A stretch of 64,000 bases of DNA, taken from the NCBI GenBank assembly GCA_030654835.1, contig JAURWS010000037.1, forward strand, positions 124,001 through 188,000. Reading direction: 5' to 3'. Source of the DNA: Gammaproteobacteria bacterium. Its GTDB lineage: Bacteria; Pseudomonadota; Gammaproteobacteria; Pseudomonadales; Pseudohongiellaceae. Every line of letters starts with the position of its first letter. The stretch's first letter is position 1. The notes below the pieces were generated by a model, which worked only from the letters and a program-made list of their open reading frames with translations, made no database searches and was not told the origin of the DNA. Positions 2,764-16,314 of the stretch are shown in pieces. A program made the position numbers and the translations under genes.

Positions 2764-3636
2764 CTACCAGCCTGTGATTTCCTTGATGCCGTTTCCGATA
2801 TCGGCAAGACTGCGGACGGTCTTCACTCCCGCATCCTGCAAGGCTGCAAATTTTTCAGCAGCAGTCCCCTTACCGCCAGAAATAATTGCTCCCGCGTGTC
2901 CCATACGTTTGCCGGCAGGAGCGGTGACTCCTGCAATGTAGGAGACAACGGGCTTGCGGACATTGGCTTTAATATAAGCAGCAGCCTCCTCTTCGGCCGT
3001 ACCGCCAATCTCACCGATCATGACGATGGCTTCAGTTTGTTCATCCTTTTCAAACAAGGCCAGAATGTCGATGAAGTTGGAGCCAGGAATAGGGTCTCCT
3101 CCAATACCTACACATGACGACTGCCCAAAGCCAAAATCGGTAGTCTGTTTCACGGCTTCATATGTCAAAGTGCCTGAACGTGAAACGATCCCCACCCGGC
3201 CCTGTTTGTGAATGTTGCCTGGCATAATTCCAATCTTGGATTCGCCGGGGGTGATAACGCCTGGGCAGTTCGGTCCTATCAGACGTACGCCCAACTCGTC
3301 GCACTTCACCTTCACATCAAGCATGTCCAATGTTGGAATACCTTCTGTTATGCAAACAATAAGCTTGATGCCTGCAAATGCGGCCTCAAGGATGGAATCT
3401 TTGCAGAACGGAGCGGGAACGTAGATGACAGATGCTTCTGCACCTGTATCACGGATCGCATCTTTTACTGTATTGAACACGGGTAGACCAAGATGTATCT
3501 GGCCACCCTTTCCGGGGGTCACGCCGCCAACCATTCTTGTACCATATTGAATGGCCTGCTCTGAGTGAAATGTGCCTTGAGATCCCGTGAATCCCTGGCA
3601 AATAACTCGGGTGTTTTTACTCAGCAATATACTCAT
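2764..3636 (-). CDS. sucD: Succinyl-CoA synthetase, alpha subunit
   Basis: This 290-residue enzyme, with SucC, interconverts succinyl-CoA and succinate with formation of ATP or GTP in the TCA cycle. The N-terminal CoA-binding Rossmann fold starts at residue 1 with [16 protein letters not shown]. The phosphorylated active-site histidine is His247 in the conserved GHAGAI segment. Length equals the usual bacterial SucD (about 290). It is the last gene of the nine-gene operon and overlaps the sucC stop by 4 bases (ATGA), as expected for subunits made in equal amounts. Confidence 0.97.
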
Positions 3637-4802
3637 TTCACGCCCCTTGCAGCTGCGACTACTTTTTCTGCCGCATCCGTCAGGCTGCTTGCAGCGATAA
3701 TGTTCAATCCGCTGTCGCCCAGAACCTTGCGACCCAATTCTGCGTTGTTACCTTCCAGTCTAACGACCACCGGCACTGTCACGCCCACTTCGGCAACGGC
3801 ACCGATGATACCCTCTGCGATCATGTCGCAACGCACGATGCCACCAAAGATATTGATAAGCACAGCCTGTACATTGCTGTCAGAGAGAATGATCTTGAAA
3901 GCCTCTGTAACTCGTTCCTTGGTTGCGCCTCCACCAACATCCAGGAAATTGGCCGGCTTGCCACCGTGCAACTGCACGATATCCATGGTGCCCATCGCAA
4001 GTCCGGCTCCGTTCACCATGCAGCCGATATTGCCGTCCAATGCAACGTAATTGAGTTCCCACTTTGCTGCACGAGCTTCGCGTTCATCATCCTGGCTTGG
4101 GTCATGCATCGCGCGCAACTTTGGTTGCCTGTACATGGCGTTGCCATCAATAGTGATTTTGCCGTCCAGACAATGCAGATTGCCCTCGCTGGTGATGACC
4201 AAAGGATTAATTTCGAGTAATGCTAGATCTAGGTCTGCAAACAGCTTGGCTAATCCGAGGAATAAATTGGTAAATTGTTTGACCTGCAGATCATTCAAGC
4301 CAAGTTGGAAGGCCAACTCGCGAGCCTGGAACGGCTGCGCTCCGCACAGCGGATCGATTGTGGCTTTGATAATTTTCTCTGGCGTTTCTTCTGCGACTTT
4401 TTCAATCTCTACGCCACCTTCGGTAGATGCCATGAAAACTATGCGACGGGAAGATCGATCGATAACGGCGCCGAGATACAATTCCTGGGCTATATCTGTG
4501 CAGGTTTCCACCAGAATTTTACTGACAGGCTGTCCGTTGGCATCTGTCTGATACGTCACCAGATTCTTGCCGAGCCACTTTTCAGCGAATGCCCGGATTT
4601 CCTCTTTGCTTGAAACCAGTTTAACGCCGCCGGCTTTGCCTCGGCCGCCAGCATGTACCTGTGCCTTCACTACCCATTTGTCACCACCCAGCTTGTCTGC
4701 TGCGGCTGTAGCATCCTCTGGGGTATCCACGGCGTAGCCTGTCGAGACTGGCAACCCGTATTCAGCAAACAACTGCTTTGCCTGATATTCGTGTAAATTC
4801 AT
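3633..4802 (-). CDS. sucC: Succinyl-CoA synthetase, beta subunit
   Basis: This 389-residue protein is the nucleotide-binding partner of SucD. It begins [20 protein letters not shown], the typical start of the family. It has an ATP-grasp domain over about residues 1-240, with the glycine-rich loop [13 protein letters not shown] near 50-62. The C-terminal CoA-ligase domain includes [10 protein letters not shown] and [10 protein letters not shown]. Length is standard (E. coli 388). It lies 52 bases after lpdA and overlaps sucD, placing it in the sdh-suc operon. Confidence 0.97.
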
Positions 4803-4854: not shown

Positions 4855-7549
<2,695 letters not shown>

Positions 7550-7579: not shown

Positions 7580-10420
7580 TTAGTCGACAAGCTGCAAAGC
7601 CTGATCTATAAAAAGTCGCTGTTGTTCAAGGTGCAGTGCAGGATACCCGGCTGCCGCAGCAGCAGAGGCCTCTCTACCAGCATAGTTTAGTTTGACGTTT
7701 GTATTGAGCTCTTGAGAAACCCTGCGCATGTGGTGCTGACTTGAATACCATGCTCCTTGATTCATTGGCTCTTCCTGGCACCATACAACTTCGTTGAAGT
7801 TGCCGTACAAGCTCATAGCCTGACGCAAATCATCAGAGGGGAACGGATAGAGTTGTTCCAGGCGGATAATTGCAATGTTGTCGATACCACGTGCTCTGCG
7901 TTCCTGCCGAAGGTCGTAGTAAACTTTCCCGCTGCACAAAACGATGCGCGTAACTTTGCTGGCGGGTAGCGAATCGGTTTCGCCAATTACTACCTGGAAT
8001 GTACCTTCTGATAGCTCTTCAAGTGTTGAAGTGGTTTCCTTGTGGCGCAAGAGACTCTTAGGCGACATCACTATGAGAGGCTTCCTAAGTGGACTAAGCA
8101 CTTGACGCCGCAGCATATGGAAGACCTGCGCTGATGTGGTAGGTAAGCAAACCTGAATGTTTTGCTCGGCGCATAACTGCAGGAAGCGCTCAAGCCTGGC
8201 TGAGGAGTGCTCTGGCCCCTGCCCTTCATAACCGTGCGGAAGCAGCATCGTCAGACCGCAAAGTCGTTGCCACTTGTGCTCGCCACTGGTGATGAACTGG
8301 TCGATGACGACTTGAGCTGAGTTGGCGAAATCTCCAAATTGAGCCTCCCAGACTACCAATGCATTTGGAGTCGTGGTGGCGTAACCATACTCAAATGCAA
8401 GAACGGCCACTTCTGAAAGAAGTGAGTCGTAGATTGAAAAGGTTCGCTGATCAGATGATATTGATTTCAGTGGAATGTATTCGCTACCGTTTTCCTGATC
8501 ATGAAGTACTGCGTGTCGATGAGAGAAAGTCCCTCTGCCGACGTCCTGACCGGTAATGCGAACTTTGTTGCCGGTTGTTAGAATGCTCGCATACGCCAAT
8601 GTTTCGGCGAAGCCCCAATCTACAGGTTTCTCCCCGGCGGCCATAAGCGCTCTATCGTCATTGATCTTCTGCACTTGTTTTTGCAGATTGAAATTTGCAG
8701 GAATTGATACGAGTTTTCGCGCCAACGCCTTGAGCGTCTCGAGTTTGATTGTGGTGTTGTAATGAGGACTCCATTCATGTCCCAAATAGGGATTCCAGTC
8801 CACGAACAACTCAATTGACGGCTCTTTTACCAGTGACTTGACGACATGTGAGCCTGTGTCTAGTGCTTTGCGATAGGATGAATTCAGGTATTCCGCTTCC
8901 TCTTCAGTCAGCACAGACTCTGAAATCAACTTTTCAGCATACAAGGCTCTGGTTGTCTTTTGCTGCCTGATTTGGTTATACATCAACGGCTGAGTGCTGG
9001 AGGGCTCATCTGTCTCGTTGTGGCCGCGGCGGCGATAGCAAACCAAGTCAATGACCACGTCTTTTTTGAACTCATACCGGAAGTCCAATGCGAGCTGGGT
9101 GACAAACAATACTGCTTCTGGATCGTCACCATTAACATGGAATATTGGAGCCTGAACCATTTTCGCAACGTCGGTACAGTATTCGGAAGAACGTGCATCA
9201 TCTTGGCGGTGCGTAGTGAAACCTACTTGATTGTTCACTATGATGTGGACAGTGCCGCCTGTTGAATAAGCCCGGGTCTTCGACATCTGGAAGGTTTCCA
9301 TTACGACGCCCTGACCGGCGAACGCAGCATCCCCATGAATGATCAATGGGATGACCGCGTTGCCGTGATGGTCCTGTCGTCGATCCTGGCGAGCCCTTAC
9401 GGATCCTTCTACCACAGGAGAAACAATTTCCAGATGTGAAGGGTTGAATGCCATGGCCAGATGTACTTCTCCGCCCGGCGTCATCACGTTTGAGGAAAAA
9501 CCCTGGTGATACTTAACGTCCCCTGAACTCTTGTAAGTAGCACGCCCTTCGAATTCACTGAACAAATCTGAAGGATTTTTACCGAGAGTGTTTACAAGAA
9601 CATTAAGTCGACCTCTGTGGGCCATCCCTATTACAACTTCCTTAACACCATAACTTCCAGAGCGCTGGATTAGTTCATCAATCAGAGGGATAAGCGACTC
9701 GCCGCCCTCTAAACCGAATCGTTTGGTGCCTGGATATTTGGAGTCGAGGTGCTTCTCAAGACCTTCGGCAGCACTGAGTCTTTCCAGCAAGTGTCGCTGT
9801 ACTTCAGGGCCGAAATCAGGGTTTCCGTGTTTGCTTTCTATGCGTTTCTGGATCCATTGTTTTTCAGCCAAATTCACAATGTGCATGAATTCATAACCAA
9901 TCGATCCGCAATATATGCGCTCAAGAAGGTCTGTGATTTCTCGAAGAGGAGCCTTATCCTTCTTTATGAAGAGTGAACCCGTTTGAAAAACAGTAGAATT
10001 ATCGGCTGGAGAGAGACCGTGAAAATCAAGCTGCAAATCCGGAATATGCTCCCTTCGCATCAGATTCAATGGGTCAAGTTTTGCCTTCTGGTGCCCGCGC
10101 ACTCGATATGAACTAATCAAGTGAAGCACTCGAACCTGTTTATTCTCATGCTCGGAATTTACCACTGCATCGTTTGTCAGCAGCGGGTTAAAACGACTCG
10201 TTTTGCCGAGTCTTTTGAAATATTCCTGTATCTCCAAATGAGAAATATCCGACGTATTGGAGTCGGATACTTTGGGAAGATTCTGGAAAAAAATTCGCCA
10301 TTCCTGCGAAACCTGTTCGGGATCCTTGAGGAACTGGTCGTACAATTGTTCAACGTATGAAGCATTACCGCCTGATAAATGCCCCGTACTCCACATCAAC
10401 TCCATAATGCTGTCATGCAT
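7580..10420 (-). CDS. sucA: 2-Oxoglutarate dehydrogenase E1 component
   Basis: This 946-residue thiamine-diphosphate enzyme decarboxylates 2-oxoglutarate and passes the succinyl group to SucB. The N-terminal E2-binding segment begins with MWSTGHLSGGNASYVEQLYD. GMAHRGRLN is at residues 265-273 and the ThDP-binding GDAAFAGQG at 363-371. The C-terminal transketolase-like half contains HGYEGQGPEHSSARLERFL. The length is slightly above E. coli SucA (933). It follows sdhB after a 93-base gap, the largest in the operon, so an internal promoter is possible, but none is obvious. Confidence 0.97.
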   Translation of the reverse strand: MHDSIMELMWSTGHLSGGNASYVEQLYDQFLKDPEQVSQEWRIFFQNLPKVSDSNTSDISHLEIQEYFKRLGKTSRFNPLLTNDAVVNSEHENKQVRVLHLISSYRVRGHQKAKLDPLNLMRREHIPDLQLDFHGLSPADNSTVFQTGSLFIKKDKAPLREITDLLERIYCGSIGYEFMHIVNLAEKQWIQKRIESKHGNPDFGPEVQRHLLERLSAAEGLEKHLDSKYPGTKRFGLEGGESLIPLIDELIQRSGSYGVKEVVIGMAHRGRLNVLVNTLGKNPSDLFSEFEGRATYKSSGDVKYHQGFSSNVMTPGGEVHLAMAFNPSHLEIVSPVVEGSVRARQDRRQDHHGNAVIPLIIHGDAAFAGQGVVMETFQMSKTRAYSTGGTVHIIVNNQVGFTTHRQDDARSSEYCTDVAKMVQAPIFHVNGDDPEAVLFVTQLALDFRYEFKKDVVIDLVCYRRRGHNETDEPSSTQPLMYNQIRQQKTTRALYAEKLISESVLTEEEAEYLNSSYRKALDTGSHVVKSLVKEPSIELFVDWNPYLGHEWSPHYNTTIKLETLKALARKLVSIPANFNLQKQVQKINDDRALMAAGEKPVDWGFAETLAYASILTTGNKVRITGQDVGRGTFSHRHAVLHDQENGSEYIPLKSISSDQRTFSIYDSLLSEVAVLAFEYGYATTTPNALVVWEAQFGDFANSAQVVIDQFITSGEHKWQRLCGLTMLLPHGYEGQGPEHSSARLERFLQLCAEQNIQVCLPTTSAQVFHMLRRQVLSPLRKPLIVMSPKSLLRHKETTSTLEELSEGTFQVVIGETDSLPASKVTRIVLCSGKVYYDLRQERRARGIDNIAIIRLEQLYPFPSDDLRQAMSLYGNFNEVVWCQEEPMNQGAWYSSQHHMRRVSQELNTNVKLNYAGREASAAAAAGYPALHLEQQRLFIDQALQLVD

Positions 10421-10513: not shown

Positions 10514-11221
10514 TCAGGTGGCGCGCTGTAGAAGCATTGAACGAATATGTCCAATCGCACGCGTAGGATTCAATCCTTTCGGGCATACGGCGACACAGTT
10601 CATGATTCCGCGGCACCTGAATACGCTGAATGGATCCTCAAGATTTGCGAGACGTTCATTAATTGCAGTATCCCTGCTGTCGGCCAGGAATCTATATGCT
10701 TGCAACAGTCCTGCAGGACCGATGAATTTTTCAGGATTCCACCAAAAAGAAGGACAGTTAGTGCTGCAGCACGCGCACAAAATGCATTCATAAAGGCCAT
10801 CGAGTTTTTCACGATCTTCGGGCGATTGAAGTCGTTCGATCGCGGGTGCTGGAGTGTTGTTGATCAAGAAGGGCTGGATCTTCTCAAACTGCTTATAGAA
10901 GACAGTCATATCCACAACCAGATCGCGCACCACTGGCAGACCGGGAAGTGGTCGTATTACCAACTTGCCGCCCGATTTCACCACACTGGATACCGGTGTG
11001 ATGCATGCCAGTCCGTTCGTCCCGTTGATATTCATACCATCGGATCCGCAAACGCCTTCTCTACAGGAGCGTCGATACGTGATGGAAGGATCCTTGCGCT
11101 TCAGCAACTCAAGTACATCCAGAACCATGAGATCTTTCCCTGCTGGAATCTCGACTTCATGGTCTTGCATGCTGGGCTTTGCATCAGTTTCTGGATTATA
11201 GCGATATAAGCTTACTAACAC
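10514..11221 (-). CDS. sdhB: Succinate dehydrogenase iron-sulfur subunit
   Basis: This 235-residue subunit carries electrons from SdhA to ubiquinone. The [2Fe-2S] ligands are Cys53, Cys58 and Cys73 (with Asp61) in CREGVCGSDGM and the following NGLAC. The [4Fe-4S] and [3Fe-4S] clusters are bound by CILCACCSTNCPS and CRGIMNCVAVCPKGLNP. The length is close to E. coli SdhB (238). It follows sdhA by 56 bases in the same operon and works at the cytoplasmic face of the inner membrane. Confidence 0.97.
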   Translation of the reverse strand: MLVSLYRYNPETDAKPSMQDHEVEIPAGKDLMVLDVLELLKRKDPSITYRRSCREGVCGSDGMNINGTNGLACITPVSSVVKSGGKLVIRPLPGLPVVRDLVVDMTVFYKQFEKIQPFLINNTPAPAIERLQSPEDREKLDGLYECILCACCSTNCPSFWWNPEKFIGPAGLLQAYRFLADSRDTAINERLANLEDPFSVFRCRGIMNCVAVCPKGLNPTRAIGHIRSMLLQRAT

Positions 11222-11277: not shown

Positions 11278-13050
11278 TTAATAGGTTCGTACTTTCGGCT
11301 CAAACTTTTCAACAGTCTTCGGAGAGAAGTTGACCGCTCGCTTGCTGATGGACTTCGTCGTCGGGAAGTACAGAGAGTGACAAAGCCAATTCTCGTCGTC
11401 ACGTTCTTGAAAATCGTCCCTTGCGTGTGCTCCACGACTTTCAGTTCTGGTCTCCGCCGCAATGGCTGTCGCTTCTGCTACTTCAAAAAGGTTTTCAAGC
11501 TCCAGAGCTTCAATACGTGCTGTGTTGAAAGCATTACTCTTATCAACGAGATTAATGTTTGCAACACGTTCACGCAGAGTCTTCAGTTTTTCGATGCCGT
11601 CACGCATGAAATCACCACGACGGAAGACGCCGAAATGATTCTGCATTATTGTTTGAAGATCGGTACGAACCTCCGCAACGCTTTCGCCAGAAGTGGTGGT
11701 ATTAAGTCGGTTCAGACGAGATAGCGCTTGCTCAATATCTGACTGAGAAGCGGATCGTTGCTCTATGCCTTGACGCAGCATGGTCTCGATGTGCATGCCC
11801 GCCGCCCGCCCAAATACCACGAGGTCCAGCAATGAGTTGCCACCCAGTCGATTGGCGCCATGGACTGAAACACAAGCGACCTCCCCTACCGCAAACAATC
11901 CCTCAATAATCTTGTCCTTGCCATTACTGTCTTGCGTTAATGCTTGACCGTTAATATTGGTGGGAATTCCGCCCATCATGTAATGGCACGTGGGGACAAC
12001 AGGGATGGGTTCCTTTACGGGGTCCACATGTGCGAATGTACGCGACAATTCGAGAATGCCTGGGAGTTTGGAATTTAGAACTTTTTCACCAAGGTGATCC
12101 AGTTTCAAAAGTACGTGGTCGCCGTCGGGGCCACAACCGCGCCCTTGAATGATTTCCAGAATTATGGATCTGGCAACTACATCACGCCCCGCAAGATCTT
12201 TCGCATTTGGAGCATAGCGTTCCATGAACCGCTCGCCGTCTTTATTGATGAGGTAGCCACCCTCGCCGCGACAGCCTTCGGTTACCAAGGTGCCTGCGCC
12301 ATAAATGCCGGTCGGGTGGAACTGCCACATTTCAATATCCTGAACCGGATATCCCGCCCTTAACGCCATCCCGACACCGTCACCTGTATTGATCATGGCA
12401 TTGGTAGTCGACGCGTATATGCGACCTGCACCTCCCGTAGCAAAAACCGTCGCTTTTGACTTAACGTAGACGGTCTCGCCGGTTTCAATGCAGATGGCTA
12501 TTACACCCACGACCACGCCATCCTGATTTCTTACCAGGTCCGTCGCATACCATTCGTTGAAGAAAACAGTCTTGTTCTTGAGATTGCCTTGGTATAGCGC
12601 ATGGAGAAGTGCGTGACCGGTACGGTCTGCAGCCGCACATGTACGCGCTGCCTGCCCTCCTTTTCCATAGTCTTTTGACTGTCCCCCGAACGGACGCTGA
12701 TAGATGCGCCCATTTTCGGTTCGCGAGAAAGGCAGGCCCATGTGTTCAAGTTCATAAACAGTCTGAGGGCCCTCACTGCACATGTACTCAATAGCGTCTT
12801 GATCCCCAATATAATCAGAGCCTTTCACAGTGTCATACATATGCCAACGCCAATCGTCATTCGGATCTGAGCTTGCAATGGCGCAAGTTATGCCGCCCTG
12901 AGCCGAGACTGTATGTGAGCGGGTTGGAAAAACCTTACTGATAACTGCTGTTTTATAACCTGATTGGGCTAATTGCAGGGCAGCGCGCATACCTGCGCCG
13001 CCTCCCCCAACTATCACTGCATCAAATGACAGTGTGCGCATGCCAGACAT
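11278..13050 (-). CDS. sdhA: Succinate dehydrogenase flavoprotein subunit
   Basis: This 590-residue catalytic subunit oxidises succinate to fumarate using covalently bound FAD. The FAD motif [12 protein letters not shown] is near residue 14, and the histidine that attaches FAD lies in [11 protein letters not shown] near residue 46. The substrate-binding stretch [11 protein letters not shown] and the C-terminal [12 protein letters not shown] and PKVRTY segments are typical. The length equals E. coli SdhA (588). It starts directly after the sdhD stop with no gap. Confidence 0.97.
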
Positions 13051-13419
13051 TTATATACCCCACAGAATCTGAATACCCCAAACGAGGTAAATGAACATCA
13101 AAACAACGCATGCTGTCTGGAAGAAAAAGCGGATTACCGTTGCTTTCCCTCCCAGCATGTCAGACGTCAGATAGTCCGTGGAGATAGTCCACATACCAAT
13201 CCATGCGTGTGCGCAGAGCGCCATGAGCGCCATGAGGCTGGCAATGCGCATCCAGGTAGCACTGAATAGTTTCTGCCATTGCTGATAGTCTAGATCCGGG
13301 TTGAGAAGCAGGTAACCAAACAGGGTTACAAAATATACAGCCAGGATCACTGCCGTTATGCGTTGAACGAGCCAATCGTAGAGTCCGCTCCGCCCAAAAC
13401 TAGTGACGTTAGTTACCAT
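13051..13419 (-). CDS. sdhD: Succinate dehydrogenase membrane anchor SdhD
   Basis: This 122-residue protein has three membrane helices and helps bind haem b and ubiquinone. The chosen start is the ATG at 13417-13419 (MVTNVTSFGRSGLYDWLVQRITA). A longer open frame upstream only shadows sdhC. The haem ligand histidine is in LCAHAWIGMWTI, which matches the SdhD HAWIGMW signature. The Tyr of TDYL near the quinone site is also present. The start overlaps the sdhC stop by 7 bases. Confidence 0.95.
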   Translation of the reverse strand: MVTNVTSFGRSGLYDWLVQRITAVILAVYFVTLFGYLLLNPDLDYQQWQKLFSATWMRIASLMALMALCAHAWIGMWTISTDYLTSDMLGGKATVIRFFFQTACVVLMFIYLVWGIQILWGI

Positions 13420-13787
13420 AACCAGACTCCCGTAAGTATGATTGTGAGAGCAGAGATCGCTATCACAAGCTTGGCGCCCAGCAAGCCGCCAGCAAAAGTC
13501 TCGCCAATGCCCATGTCCATCAAGAGATGTTTGATTCCCGCAATGAGGTGATACAAAAGGCCTGCAAGCACAGCCCATAGCAGCAACCTGACGGGGATTT
13601 GATTCAACCACTGTTCGACGCGAGCAAAACCATCTGCGGATGTCAGTGATTCACTGAAAAGCCAGAGAAGTACAGCCACGCCGGCAAATATAAAAATACC
13701 TGAGACTCGATGCAGAATCGAGGTAATTGCCGGGAGGGGCAGTCGGAGAGTTGTAAAATCCAAGTTTCTAGGTCTTTTATCGTTCAC
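13413..13787 (-). CDS. sdhC: Succinate dehydrogenase cytochrome b556 subunit SdhC
   Basis: This 124-residue inner-membrane protein is the first gene of the sdh-suc operon. It starts MNDKRPRNLDFTTLRLPLPAITSILHR, and the LPAITSILHRVSG stretch is the SdhC signature. Three hydrophobic helices follow. The second haem ligand is the histidine in LLYHLIAGIKHLLMD. A candidate sigma-70 promoter lies about 115 bases upstream (13903-13931). Together with SdhD it anchors SdhAB and passes electrons to ubiquinone. Confidence 0.96.
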   Translation of the reverse strand: MNDKRPRNLDFTTLRLPLPAITSILHRVSGIFIFAGVAVLLWLFSESLTSADGFARVEQWLNQIPVRLLLWAVLAGLLYHLIAGIKHLLMDMGIGETFAGGLLGAKLVIAISALTIILTGVWLW

Positions 13788-14149
13788 GGATTTTTAAGTT
13801 TCTTGAGGCCCTGATGGGCATGGTTAATAAAAGTGATCGGTCCATAAAAGGCCGATCTGCTTGATTATTCGTGCAATTCAGGCGCGTGCTGCCCCGCCGG
13901 AGAGTATAAGCTTATGGCCCTTGGATTACAATAAAGGCGCGAGTTCCACGCCCCTAGACTGACAACATTTTGTCATTAAATTGCAACTGCTTCATGCGAT
14001 TTGCGCCCCTAAAAAGTGCACCCTGATACCATCGTCTAGGATCTAAAAGACGCGAGCTCAGGATATTGCGCGACAATTTGTCTAGGCTCTGACTTCTATT
14101 TATCTTTACGCACGACAATCAGAAGTATGACTGAAATATTAAGGAGCAG
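13788..14149. other. Upstream region of the sdh-suc operon
   Basis: This stretch of about 360 bases has no supported gene. It holds the candidate sdh promoter at 13903-13931. A hairpin with 8-base arms and one G-T pair lies in the expected sdhC leader (13835-13857, GATCGGTC/GGCCGATC). The right part, about 13950-14149, shows nothing recognisable and presumably includes what is left of the former divergent gltA promoter and coding region. Confidence 0.55.
13903..13931 (-). promoter_or_regulatory. Candidate sigma-70 promoter of the sdhCDAB-sucAB-lpdA-sucCD operon
   Basis: On the minus strand a -35-like TTGTAA (13926-13931) and a -10-like TATACT (13903-13908) are separated by 17 bases. Transcription would start near 13896, giving a leader of about 110 bases. 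The -35 matches four of six consensus bases. Confidence 0.5.
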
Positions 14150-14507
14150 TACAAGGACAAGAAGACGGTCAGAGCTGGAAAGTAATGCGACAGACATGTG
14201 ATGAGGTCTTGGAGTATTTCGGTGTTGAGAATGATCCTTTGTTCAGGATTGCTCGCAGACTTGAAGAAATGGCACTTGGGGACGAATATTTTATCGAACG
14301 TAGACTTTACCTCAACGTTGATTTTTACTCAGGGGTTATCCTGAAGGGTATTGGGATATCAGCGTCGATGTCCGCTGTAATATTTGCTATGGGAGAGCAC
14401 TTGGCTGGATATCTCATTGGCATGAGACGACAAGCAATTCGTACCGTCTCGGCAGGTCTTGCCAACTTTACACGGGAAAGCCAAGACGTGATTACCCAAA
14501 GAACTAG
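14150..14507 (+). pseudogene. gltA: Citrate synthase gene remnant (3' end only, frameshifted)
   Basis: Translation from the ATG at 14185 gives [30 protein letters not shown] and [15 protein letters not shown]. These align with the C-terminal quarter of type II citrate synthase. After VIFAM (14391) one base is missing. The next frame continues correctly with [12 protein letters not shown], then GRSCQLYTG and DYPKN, and stops at 14505-14507. Just upstream of 14185, traces such as QYKDKK and VRAGK appear in other frames where intact genes encode VYKNFDPRAK. The catalytic aspartate (NVDFYSG) remains, but the part that should carry both active-site histidines is gone. The site, divergent from sdhC, is where Pseudomonas and many relatives carry intact gltA. 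The left boundary is approximate. Confidence 0.88.
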
Positions 14508-14590
14508 AGTTCCAGGCGAGTATTTAAGAATTCGTGAAAATGAAAGCGGGACTGAATGGGGAGCGAGTTGCAAGAGAGGGGGTGGAAAGT

Positions 14591-14666
14591 TGGTGGAGCC
14601 TATCGGGATCGAACCGATGACCTCAACGCTGCCAGCGTTGCGCTCTCCCAGCTGAGCTAAGACCCC
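14591..14666 (-). tRNA. tRNA-Ala (anticodon GGC)
   Basis: On the minus strand the 76 bases fold as a complete cloverleaf. The acceptor arm is GGGGTCT/AGGCTCC, the D-arm GCTCAGCTGGGAGAGC, the anticodon stem CAACG/CGTTG with loop CTGGCAG (anticodon GGC), and the T-arm contains GGTTCGATCC. The CCA end is encoded. It lies downstream of gltX on the same strand, an arrangement also seen in Pseudomonas. Confidence 0.96.
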
Positions 14667-14729
14667 ACAAATTAAAGCTTTTCAAACCTCTCGCTTAGGT
14701 ACGTCAACATAGTACTCAGGCTTAAAGTT

Positions 14730-14768
14730 ACTCTGAATTTGCTGCTGGGAAGCGCACAAATTCAGAGT
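14730..14768. repeat. 12-bp perfect inverted repeat between gltX and tRNA-Ala
   Basis: ACTCTGAATTTG (14730-14741) and CAAATTCAGAGT (14757-14768) are perfect complements around a 15-base loop. In the gltX transcript this would be a stable hairpin about 35 bases after the stop codon. It lacks a U-tract, so it may be a processing or stability element, or a factor-dependent 3' end, rather than an intrinsic terminator. Confidence 0.6.
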
Positions 14769-14799
14769 CCGCGCATTCTAAGCACCGACACCTCAGCTG

Positions 14800-16314
14800 T
14801 CAATCATTAGTCAGCTGTTTGTCTGAAGCCTGTCCAAGCTCTCTGAATTCCTTTTCGAACGCCTTCGCTTCCTTATTAGAAATTCCACCTAACACTGAGA
14901 TAGCATAACGAACTCGCGCGCGCGTTATGTCAAGACCTAAGATGCTTATTGAGTCGATGACTGATGTCGAGGTGGACTTTCCCGATATAGCGACAAACAG
15001 AGGGAAAAGTAAATCGCGAATCTTGGTGTTGAGTGTTTCTGCAAGTCCTAGGCAGGCTGCCTCTATATCATCACGGTCAAACCCGCGTAGTTGCTCCAAC
15101 TGCCAAAGAATGAATTGGAGAATCTTCCTTGAATCTTCCTGACTCAGTTTTTTGTGTTCAAATCTAGTCGCATCAATTTCAGGTAGCCCCGCAAAAAAGA
15201 AGGCCGCCAATGGTGCTACGTCTGTGAATCTTTCGACGCGCTCTTTTAGCAAAGGAATAATACGTGCGACCTTTTCGGGTTTGAATGCCCACTCAGCAAA
15301 TAAATTCGCAAACTGTTCATCATTCAGGTTTTCTCGGATGTACTTGCCATTTAGCCAGTCAAGTTTGGTTACATCGAATACGGGTCCCCCGAGTGATACC
15401 CGCGAGAGATCAAAACTCGCTGTCATCTCTTGAATTGTGAACTTTTCTCGCCCATCAGGCATTGTCCAGCCCATCATGCCAAGATAGTTCACGACTGCTT
15501 CAGGCAAATATCCCATATCCCTGTAGTAACCTATGCTAGTAGGGTTTTTCCGTTTACTGAGTTTGCTCTTGTCAGTATTGCGTAACAATGGCATATGGCA
15601 GTATACCGGTGGCTCCCAACCAAAGTACTGATAAAGTAACAGGTGCTTGGGAGTGGAGTTGATCCACTCTTCGCCGCGGATGACGTGGCTGATTTTCATA
15701 TGGTGGTCATCCACAACATTTGCAAAATGATAGGTGGGTAATCCATCAGACTTGATCAAAATCTGCATGTCGATTTGCTGCCAAGCAATTCGTATTTCTC
15801 CCCGTAGAAGGTCATTGAACACGCAGTCTCCGGCCTCAGGAATGCGCATGCGAATAACGTGTTCCTCCCCTCTAGAAATTTTGTTTGCAACTTCCTCCGC
15901 TGAGATTTGCAGGCAGTGTCCATCGTATCCGATGGTACTCTTCTCCCCCATTTGTTTGACGCGCAAATCCTGCAGCCTTTCCGATGTGCAGAAGCAACGG
16001 AATGCATGCTGGTTCTCAAGTAGTTTCAATATTTCAGCATTGTAAAGTGCGCTTCTTTCACTTTGGCGATAGGGTGCGAACTCACCCCCAATGTCTGGGC
16101 CCTCGCTCCAGCTCAAACCTAACCAGTTCAGTGCATTGAGAATATCCTGCTCCGATTTCGCCGAACTACGTACCTGGTCGGTGTCCTCAATGCGAAGTAT
16201 GAATTCCCCGCCGTGTTGTTGAGCAAAGCAACGATTGAATAGTGCGATGTAGGCGGTGCCAACGTGAGGGTCGCCTGTGGGTGATGGGGCTATTCGGGTT
16301 CTCACTTTTTGCAT
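14800..16314 (-). CDS. gltX: Glutamyl-tRNA synthetase
   Basis: This 504-residue class I aminoacyl-tRNA synthetase charges tRNA-Glu. It starts MQKVRTRIAPSPTGDPHVGTAY, containing the HIGH-type motif as HVGT (residues 17-20). Cysteines near CFCTSERL are in the position of the family's zinc-binding insert. The KMSKS-type loop appears as DKSKLSKRKNP. The C-terminal anticodon-binding domain is present, and length matches Pseudomonas GltX (about 494). It is leftward, with tRNA-Ala downstream. Confidence 0.96.
   Translation of the reverse strand: MQKVRTRIAPSPTGDPHVGTAYIALFNRCFAQQHGGEFILRIEDTDQVRSSAKSEQDILNALNWLGLSWSEGPDIGGEFAPYRQSERSALYNAEILKLLENQHAFRCFCTSERLQDLRVKQMGEKSTIGYDGHCLQISAEEVANKISRGEEHVIRMRIPEAGDCVFNDLLRGEIRIAWQQIDMQILIKSDGLPTYHFANVVDDHHMKISHVIRGEEWINSTPKHLLLYQYFGWEPPVYCHMPLLRNTDKSKLSKRKNPTSIGYYRDMGYLPEAVVNYLGMMGWTMPDGREKFTIQEMTASFDLSRVSLGGPVFDVTKLDWLNGKYIRENLNDEQFANLFAEWAFKPEKVARIIPLLKERVERFTDVAPLAAFFFAGLPEIDATRFEHKKLSQEDSRKILQFILWQLEQLRGFDRDDIEAACLGLAETLNTKIRDLLFPLFVAISGKSTSTSVIDSISILGLDITRARVRYAISVLGGISNKEAKAFEKEFRELGQASDKQLTND

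What the first reader, a model, noticed from the sequence alone, without database searches (positions are those of the whole stretch)
14150..14507. Decayed citrate synthase gene beside an intact sdh-suc operon
Sequence shows the C-terminal quarter of GltA with a 1-base loss near 14392, scrambled frames before 14185, and unusual substitutions such as [10 protein letters not shown] for LYPNVDFYSG. The position, divergent from sdhC, is the ancestral gltA site. The neighbouring nine TCA genes are intact, so the organism must either use another citrate synthase or run a modified cycle. It is a clear case of loss of the canonical copy at its home locus.
Basis: partly seen in the sequence, partly recalled or inferred. 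Interest (0 to 1): 0.72.

Follow-up and report, generated by a model that had tools for sequence, protein, structure and literature searches.

The report
Dead citrate synthase gene with backups
A small group of little-known bacteria has let its main citrate synthase gene, the entry point of the Krebs cycle, decay to a stump, while related enzymes elsewhere in the genome, most likely a propionate-pathway one, remain to do the job.

Summary
Window 14179-14507 is the 3' quarter of gltA in two reading frames (GltA residues 318-425 of 426), beside nine full-length sdh/lpd/suc genes. It is a pseudogene: of 124 first and second codon positions invariant in 10 intact relatives, 11 are changed here; each intact gene tested the same way gives 0-2. 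The loss is shared. G012 keeps a differently eroded 3' stump, G009 only a 5' stump with an in-frame stop, and the three group together (98/97). In 10 of 10 genus relatives with full-length GltA it lies at this site, beside sdhC. The genome is not without candidates. It keeps PrpC, in a prpB-prpC-prpD cluster (657 bits, cut-off 550), and a LysR-linked paralogue, CS3, whose catalytic Asp is Glu. Best reading: PrpC makes the TCA citrate, a natural counterpart of the laboratory rescue of gltA loss by PrpC in Pseudomonas aeruginosa (PMC9765439). Replacement is inferred, not shown; CS3 is the main rival. Mechanistically a known kind; interest moderate.

The parts
14179..14394 (+). gltA remnant, first piece (GltA residues 318-389); open frame from ATG 14185
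14382..14507 (+). gltA remnant, second piece in another frame (GltA residues 386-425, then TAG)
13788..14178 (.). sdhC upstream region plus, presumably, the eroded former 5' part of gltA; most of it (366 bases) 84% identical to G012, no GltA similarity
13413..13787 (-). sdhC (divergent neighbour, full length)
13051..13425 (-). sdhD (full length)
11278..13050 (-). sdhA (full length)
10514..11221 (-). sdhB (full length)
7580..10420 (-). sucA (full length)
6332..7549 (-). sucB (full length)
4855..6300 (-). lpd, dihydrolipoyl dehydrogenase (full length)
3633..4802 (-). sucC (full length)
2764..3636 (-). sucD (full length)
14591..14666 (-). tRNA-Ala(ggc), downstream flank of the gltA site
14800..16314 (-). 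gltX, downstream flank of the gltA site; the only full-length gltX match in the genome (two weak partial matches elsewhere)

Best explanation
The fragment is a dead, eroding remnant of gltA, most simply lost once in the ancestor of a small group (G000, G012, G009) within a genus of Gammaproteobacteria. The TCA cycle is still fed with citrate, most likely by PrpC, the bifunctional 2-methylcitrate/citrate synthase of the prpBCD cluster, which condenses acetyl-CoA as well as propionyl-CoA with oxaloacetate; because PrpC could already do this, GltA became dispensable and decayed. Shown: the remnant, its relaxed constraint, the shared loss, the intact PrpC and its residues. Inferred: that PrpC carries the flux, and that it allowed the loss.
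For: Remnant in two frames. Loss of constraint: 11 of 124 first/second codon sites that are invariant in 10 intact gltA changed in G000; 0-2 of 124-126 for each of the 10 intact genes against the other nine. Remnant G000 vs G012: 60 differences in 293 aligned sites (20.5%) plus internal gaps, against 37 of 306 (12.1%) at fourfold sites of sdhA. Two separately held genomes carry a decayed 3' remnant (G000, G012) and a third a 5' remnant with an in-frame stop (54 codons, 41% identity, E 9.7e-5), which speaks against an assembly error. They group together on an SdhABC tree: 98/97, 99% of 200 bootstrap trees, midpoint root. Only three PF00285 places at E up to 0.001 in the 3.84-Mb genome, one of them the fragment (completeness 100 by the tool's figure). 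PrpC scores 657 bits on NF009006 'bifunctional 2-methylcitrate synthase/citrate synthase' (cut-off 550), has His/His/Asp and the three Arg residues in 11 of 11 copies from 10 genus genomes, and lies on one strand with prpB and prpD, both over their cut-offs. Its best solved relative by sequence is 6s6f (583 bits), the P. aeruginosa PrpC, whose kcat/Km is 114e3 for acetyl-CoA and 104e3 for propionyl-CoA, and whose derepression overcomes gltA loss; the two proposed specificity residues there are Tyr-184 and Ala-311 (PMC9765439, passages, section 7), and G000 PrpC has Tyr and Ala at these places. Full-length PrpC is present in 3 of 3 gltA-less members with a readable site and in 7 of 10 gltA-bearing relatives.
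Against: No expression, enzyme or growth data were seen for these organisms. CS3 could be the replacement instead. Tyr/Ala occur in PrpC of gltA-bearing relatives too, so nothing at those residues tracks the loss. The PrpC/Sdh divergence ratio is lower in two gltA-less pairs (0.77, 0.87) than in the 14 pairs with at least one gltA-bearing genome (1.09-3.9), but it is 1.65 for G000-G012, the pairs are not independent, and CS3 shows a similar drop in the same two pairs (1.03, 0.93; others 0.39-4.09), so it does not single out PrpC. No GntR-type prpR was noticed beside prp in the 11 loci (by eye, frames of 130 aa or more; in some the contig ends close by), with or without gltA, so the regulatory half of the P. 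aeruginosa story could not be tested. G010, close by CS3 sequence (97.9%), has CS3 but no PrpC or GltA in its 91%-complete assembly; it also has no sdhA match, so this is weak.
Confidence: 0.65

Rival explanations
1. CS3, the LysR-linked citrate-synthase paralogue found across the genus, took over citrate synthesis, with Glu in place of the catalytic Asp; PrpC stays in propionate metabolism. The divergent LysR-type regulator gene resembles the citR-citA pair of Bacillus subtilis (recalled).
For: CS3 is full length and present in 3 of 3 gltA-less members and 9 of 10 gltA-bearing relatives (the miss, G006, is 76% complete and has one short partial family match). The other active-site residues looked at (three His, three Arg) are kept. 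It is the only citrate-synthase-family match in the G010 assembly. Many unlike citrate synthases complement an E. coli gltA deletion when expressed (PMC11615384, passages). Its divergence ratio drops in the gltA-less pairs much as that of PrpC does.
Against: Glu at the catalytic Asp, and Gln/Leu at the His/Val acyl-pocket places, in 13 of 13 genus copies; Glu also in 3 of 3 distant copies. The solved relatives whose alignments were printed (4 of 44, 5 of 44) have Asp there; the rest were not inspected. It is below the cut-off of each of the 22 NCBIfam models listed. It coexists with GltA in 9 relatives, so its job is not simply to replace it. A paralogue of this fold need not support citrate synthesis: Caulobacter CitC did not complement gltA, CitB did (PMC7083601, passages).
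Confidence: 0.22
2. No enzyme of the citrate synthase fold makes the citrate here: a Re-citrate synthase or citrate uptake feeds a partial cycle.
For: gltA is dead; HMGL-family genes exist.
Against: The three HMGL-family genes of G000 are a 2-isopropylmalate synthase over its cut-off, a protein closest to citramalate synthase but under its cut-off, and a pyruvate carboxylase subunit B/oxaloacetate decarboxylase alpha protein over cut-offs. PrpC is intact with its catalytic residues. AcnA, AcnB and isocitrate dehydrogenase are present. No Re-citrate synthase sequence was used as a query, and uptake genes were not sought.
Confidence: 0.05
3. Artefact: the break is an assembly or binning error and an intact gltA exists in the organism.
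For: The genomes are draft assemblies; the window has 48% GC while the PrpC and CS3 stretches have 57-60%.
Against: G012, a separate genome (12% different at sdhA fourfold sites), has the same site eroded in its own way and a similar GC contrast (48.2% at sdh, 59.0% at CS3, 54-56% at its two PrpC loci). gltX has one full-length match in G000. The erosion includes a large deletion and many substitutions, not one indel.
Confidence: 0.03

Closest known systems
GltA citrate synthase (TIGR01798; the hexameric 'type II' of structural papers)
   Same: Remnant aligns to residues 318-425; the site between sdhC and tRNA-Ala/gltX is that of the intact gene in relatives
   Different: About three quarters missing, frame broken, both catalytic His absent
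PrpC rescue of gltA loss in Pseudomonas aeruginosa (PMC9765439)
   Same: A close PrpC homologue with the same proposed specificity residues (Tyr, Ala) remains when gltA is gone
   Different: There a laboratory deletion with prpR mutations; here a natural loss shared by three genomes, with no prpR noticed beside prp; activity untested
Sets of citrate synthase paralogues: Caulobacter CitA/CitB/CitC; Bacillus CitA/CitZ (recalled)
   Same: Several citrate-synthase-family genes in one genome, so that one can be lost (PMC7083601, passages)
   Different: In those the main enzyme is intact; CS3 has Glu for the catalytic Asp

Membership tests
Functional GltA | Full-length protein above the TIGR01798 cut-off | tested here: not met
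   89.5 bits against 485.15; profile 308-378 of 412
Functional GltA | Two catalytic His and one Asp in one frame | tested here: not met
   The remnant begins after both His; only the NVDFYSG Asp is left
Pseudogene of gltA | Truncation or frame break against intact orthologues at the same site | tested here: met
Pseudogene of gltA | Relaxed constraint | tested here: met
   11 of 124 against 0-2 of 124-126 per intact gene; remnant diverges faster than sdhA fourfold sites
PrpC, bifunctional 2-methylcitrate/citrate synthase (G000:C2) | Equivalog score | tested here: met
   NF009006 657.4 bits, cut-off 550
PrpC, bifunctional 2-methylcitrate/citrate synthase (G000:C2) | Catalytic His/His/Asp | tested here: met
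PrpC, bifunctional 2-methylcitrate/citrate synthase (G000:C2) | prp gene context (prpB, prpD) | tested here: met
   methylisocitrate lyase 525 bits (cut-off 353) and 2-methylcitrate dehydratase 872 bits (cut-off 575) on the same strand
[quoted passage not shown]
   only inferred from P. aeruginosa PrpC
Citrate synthase proper (CS3, G000:C9) | Score over a curated NCBIfam citrate synthase cut-off | tested here: not met
   best 286.8 bits against 421.3 (TIGR01800); 22 of 22 listed models below cut-off; PF00285 is over its Pfam cut-off
Citrate synthase proper (CS3, G000:C9) | Catalytic Asp | tested here: not met
   Glu in 13 of 13 genus copies and 3 of 3 distant ones

The most novel reading that the evidence does not exclude
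The gltA-less group runs its TCA cycle on CS3, a conserved citrate-synthase-like lineage whose catalytic base is Glu instead of Asp and which sits beside a dedicated LysR-type regulator, so that the cycle's entry step has been handed to a chemically altered, differently regulated enzyme.
Probability: 0.17. Interest if true: 0.65.

Novelty: new member of a known kind. Interest (0 to 1): 0.42.

Why it matters
Laboratory work shows that PrpC can stand in for GltA after mutations that raise its expression (PMC9765439); this group looks like a case in nature where a stand-in became permanent and the original gene rotted away. It makes a question about 'underground metabolism' testable: do promiscuous enzymes keep such a role over long evolution, and what changes when GltA is swapped for an enzyme that probably lacks its NADH control? 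It also points to CS3, a conserved citrate-synthase-like protein with an altered catalytic residue and unknown reaction. Paper searches for gltA pseudogenes or replacement and for citrate synthase in this family listed no report of this case among the titles and abstract openings shown (10 of 17 papers shown); the library holds open-licence papers only.

Tried and rejected
Recent loss by one frame break: rejected, since about three quarters of the gene are gone and relatives share the loss. Bin mix-up suggested by the GC difference between contigs: unlikely, as gltX has one full match and G012 shows a similar contrast. G033 (99% complete, PrpC only) as a second, independent loss: dropped, because its sdhA begins at base 968 of its contig, which starts on the gltA side. 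G010 as a fourth member: not counted, no sdhC or sdhA match in the assembly. Other genomes of the family without a full GltA were not followed up, and that list of matches was cut. Loss of an adjacent prpR as a compensating change: none noticed beside prp with or without gltA, so no contrast. Slower PrpC evolution after the loss: hinted, but CS3 does the same and the pairs are few. A known RNA family at 13700-14800: only the tRNA. Published work on an Asp-to-Glu citrate synthase: two searches listed nothing usable. Structure prediction was not run; it would not tell PrpC from CS3 as the working enzyme.

Full report
Observation. The window lies at G000:C44:124001-188000 of a 3.84-Mb draft genome in 60 contigs. 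tblastn with an intact GltA from a genus relative finds residues 318-389 at 14179-14394 and residues 386-425 in another frame at 14382-14501. TIGR01798 and Pfam PF00285 agree. No similarity to GltA was found in 13788-14178, even at E up to 1. The nine neighbouring genes sucD, sucC, lpd, sucB, sucA, sdhB, sdhA, sdhD and sdhC are full-length with family matches.

Home locus. Of 13 genus relatives held, 10 have a full-length GltA. In 10 of 10 it lies beside sdhC, divergent; in 8 of 10 gltX is seen on the other side, and in 2 (G002, G003) the contig ends before. A tRNA-Ala lies between gltA and gltX in 7 of the 8 (in the eighth, G011, the place holds masked bases, seen). In the window the tRNA-Ala and gltX follow in the same order. 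So this is the ancestral gltA site.

Shared loss. Three relatives lack a full GltA: G012, G009 and G010. G012 keeps a 3' remnant (residues 310-424, 51% identity) with indels of its own. G009 keeps a 5' remnant of 54 codons (41% identity, E 9.7e-5) with an in-frame stop at the place of the gltA start; the gene that follows is pepN. G010 has no sdhC or sdhA match and is uninformative. On a tree of SdhA, SdhB and SdhC from 13 genomes, G000, G012 and G009 are one side of one branch (98/97; 99% of 200 bootstrap trees; midpoint root). One loss followed by different erosion is the simplest account; two losses (one in G009, one in the ancestor of G000 and G012) are not excluded. sdhA fourfold sites differ at 192 of 284 between G000 and G009, so a shared loss would be old.

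Decay. Over residues 318-389, 124 first and second codon positions are invariant in the 10 intact genes; 11 are changed in G000. The same count for each intact gene against the other nine gives 0, 1 or 2 of 124-126. Of 59 invariant amino acids, 12 are changed. Third positions still differ more than first and second between G000 and its relatives (9, 6, 47 against G011, by codon position), as expected if most of that divergence predates the loss. G000 and G012 differ at 60 of 293 aligned remnant sites, more than at sdhA fourfold sites (37 of 306).

What could make citrate. The genome has two further citrate-synthase-family genes. The first is PrpC on C2: 657 bits on the bifunctional 2-methylcitrate/citrate synthase model (cut-off 550), between prpB and prpD, which pass their own cut-offs. 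The second, CS3 on C9, lies under the cut-off of each of 22 NCBIfam models listed, is found in 12 of 13 relatives, and stands divergent from a LysR-type regulator gene in 15 of 16 loci compared, three of them distant copies at 42-48% identity; in the sixteenth, G011, the contig ends before (Pfam for the G000 regulator). PrpC has His, His, Asp and the Arg residues in 11 of 11 copies, and CS3 has Glu for Asp in 16 of 16. AcnA and AcnB and a monomeric isocitrate dehydrogenase are present. The only isocitrate-lyase-family match in G000 is weak and lies in prpB, so no glyoxylate-shunt lyase was seen, nor in gltA-bearing G011 and G005. The three HMGL-family genes of G000 are LeuA, a CimA/LeuA-like protein and a pyruvate carboxylase B/oxaloacetate decarboxylase alpha protein, so no Re-citrate synthase is apparent.

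Mechanism. In P. aeruginosa, PrpC uses acetyl-CoA and propionyl-CoA about equally well, and gltA mutants are rescued by mutations that derepress prpC (PMC9765439: passages, section 7). The G000 PrpC resembles that enzyme most among solved structures and has the same residues at the two proposed specificity places, though the authors say that the role of these residues is not clear. I therefore think that PrpC supplies the citrate. That step is inference. The same residues occur in gltA-bearing relatives, so PrpC may have been able to do this before the loss. Full-length PrpC is missing from 3 of 10 gltA-bearing assemblies (G004, G006, G007) and from none of the three gltA-less ones, which fits but is a small sample. 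Divergence ratios do not separate PrpC from CS3. No prpR-like neighbour was noticed in the 11 prp loci; regulation may lie elsewhere. CS3 is the main rival.

Naming. NCBIfam calls GltA 'cit_synth_I' and PrpC-like enzymes 'cit_synth_II'; PMC11615384 (passages) uses type I for dimers and type II for GltA-like hexamers. I avoid the numbers.

Organism. Equal contig lengths tie G012, G009 and G011 to records JAUSMU010000459, CAIOZF010000053 (title 'ErkenSummer') and MGYS01000012, titled as Gammaproteobacteria MAGs; a Pseudohongiella MAG stands at 67% SdhC identity. G000 itself is unnamed. Membership in Pseudohongiellaceae is my inference.

Literature. Papers opened were PMC9765439 (passages and section 7), PMC11615384 and PMC7083601 (passages). 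No report of natural gltA loss in this group was among the titles and abstract openings shown. Verdict: a real gltA pseudogene shared by three genomes and probably old; the physiology is probably a known kind of substitution; moderate interest.

Noticed in passing
L002:1480-2601 (G000:C9), and copies in 12 genus relatives, G020, G025, G038: CS3, a citrate-synthase-family protein with Glu at the catalytic Asp and Gln/Leu or Gln/Val at acyl-pocket places, divergent from a LysR-type regulator gene. Reaction unknown.
   Followed up: partly
L186:3267-4539 (G031:C10, another genus of the family): GltA matches in two overlapping pieces (residues 1-344 and 337-424, 71% and 76% identity) near sdhA: one frame break in a second lineage, or a sequencing error.
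   Followed up: partly
window whole; L161, L162: The window has 48% GC while the two other stretches of the same genome have 57-60%; G012 shows a similar contrast (48% at sdh, 59% at CS3, 54-56% at prpC).
   Followed up: partly
L152, L154 (G012:C131, G012:C432): G012 holds two prpC copies, 98.1% and 99.2% identical to that of G000; strain mixture or duplication.
   Followed up: no
L152:1500-2348, L161:13931-14866: Beside prpB, reading frames that look by eye like a nucleotidyltransferase/HepT-type pair (L152) and its HepT-like half (L161).
   Followed up: no
G000, G012, G009, G011, G005: No isocitrate lyase beyond weak matches, which in G000 lie in prpB, so apparently no glyoxylate shunt.
   Followed up: partly
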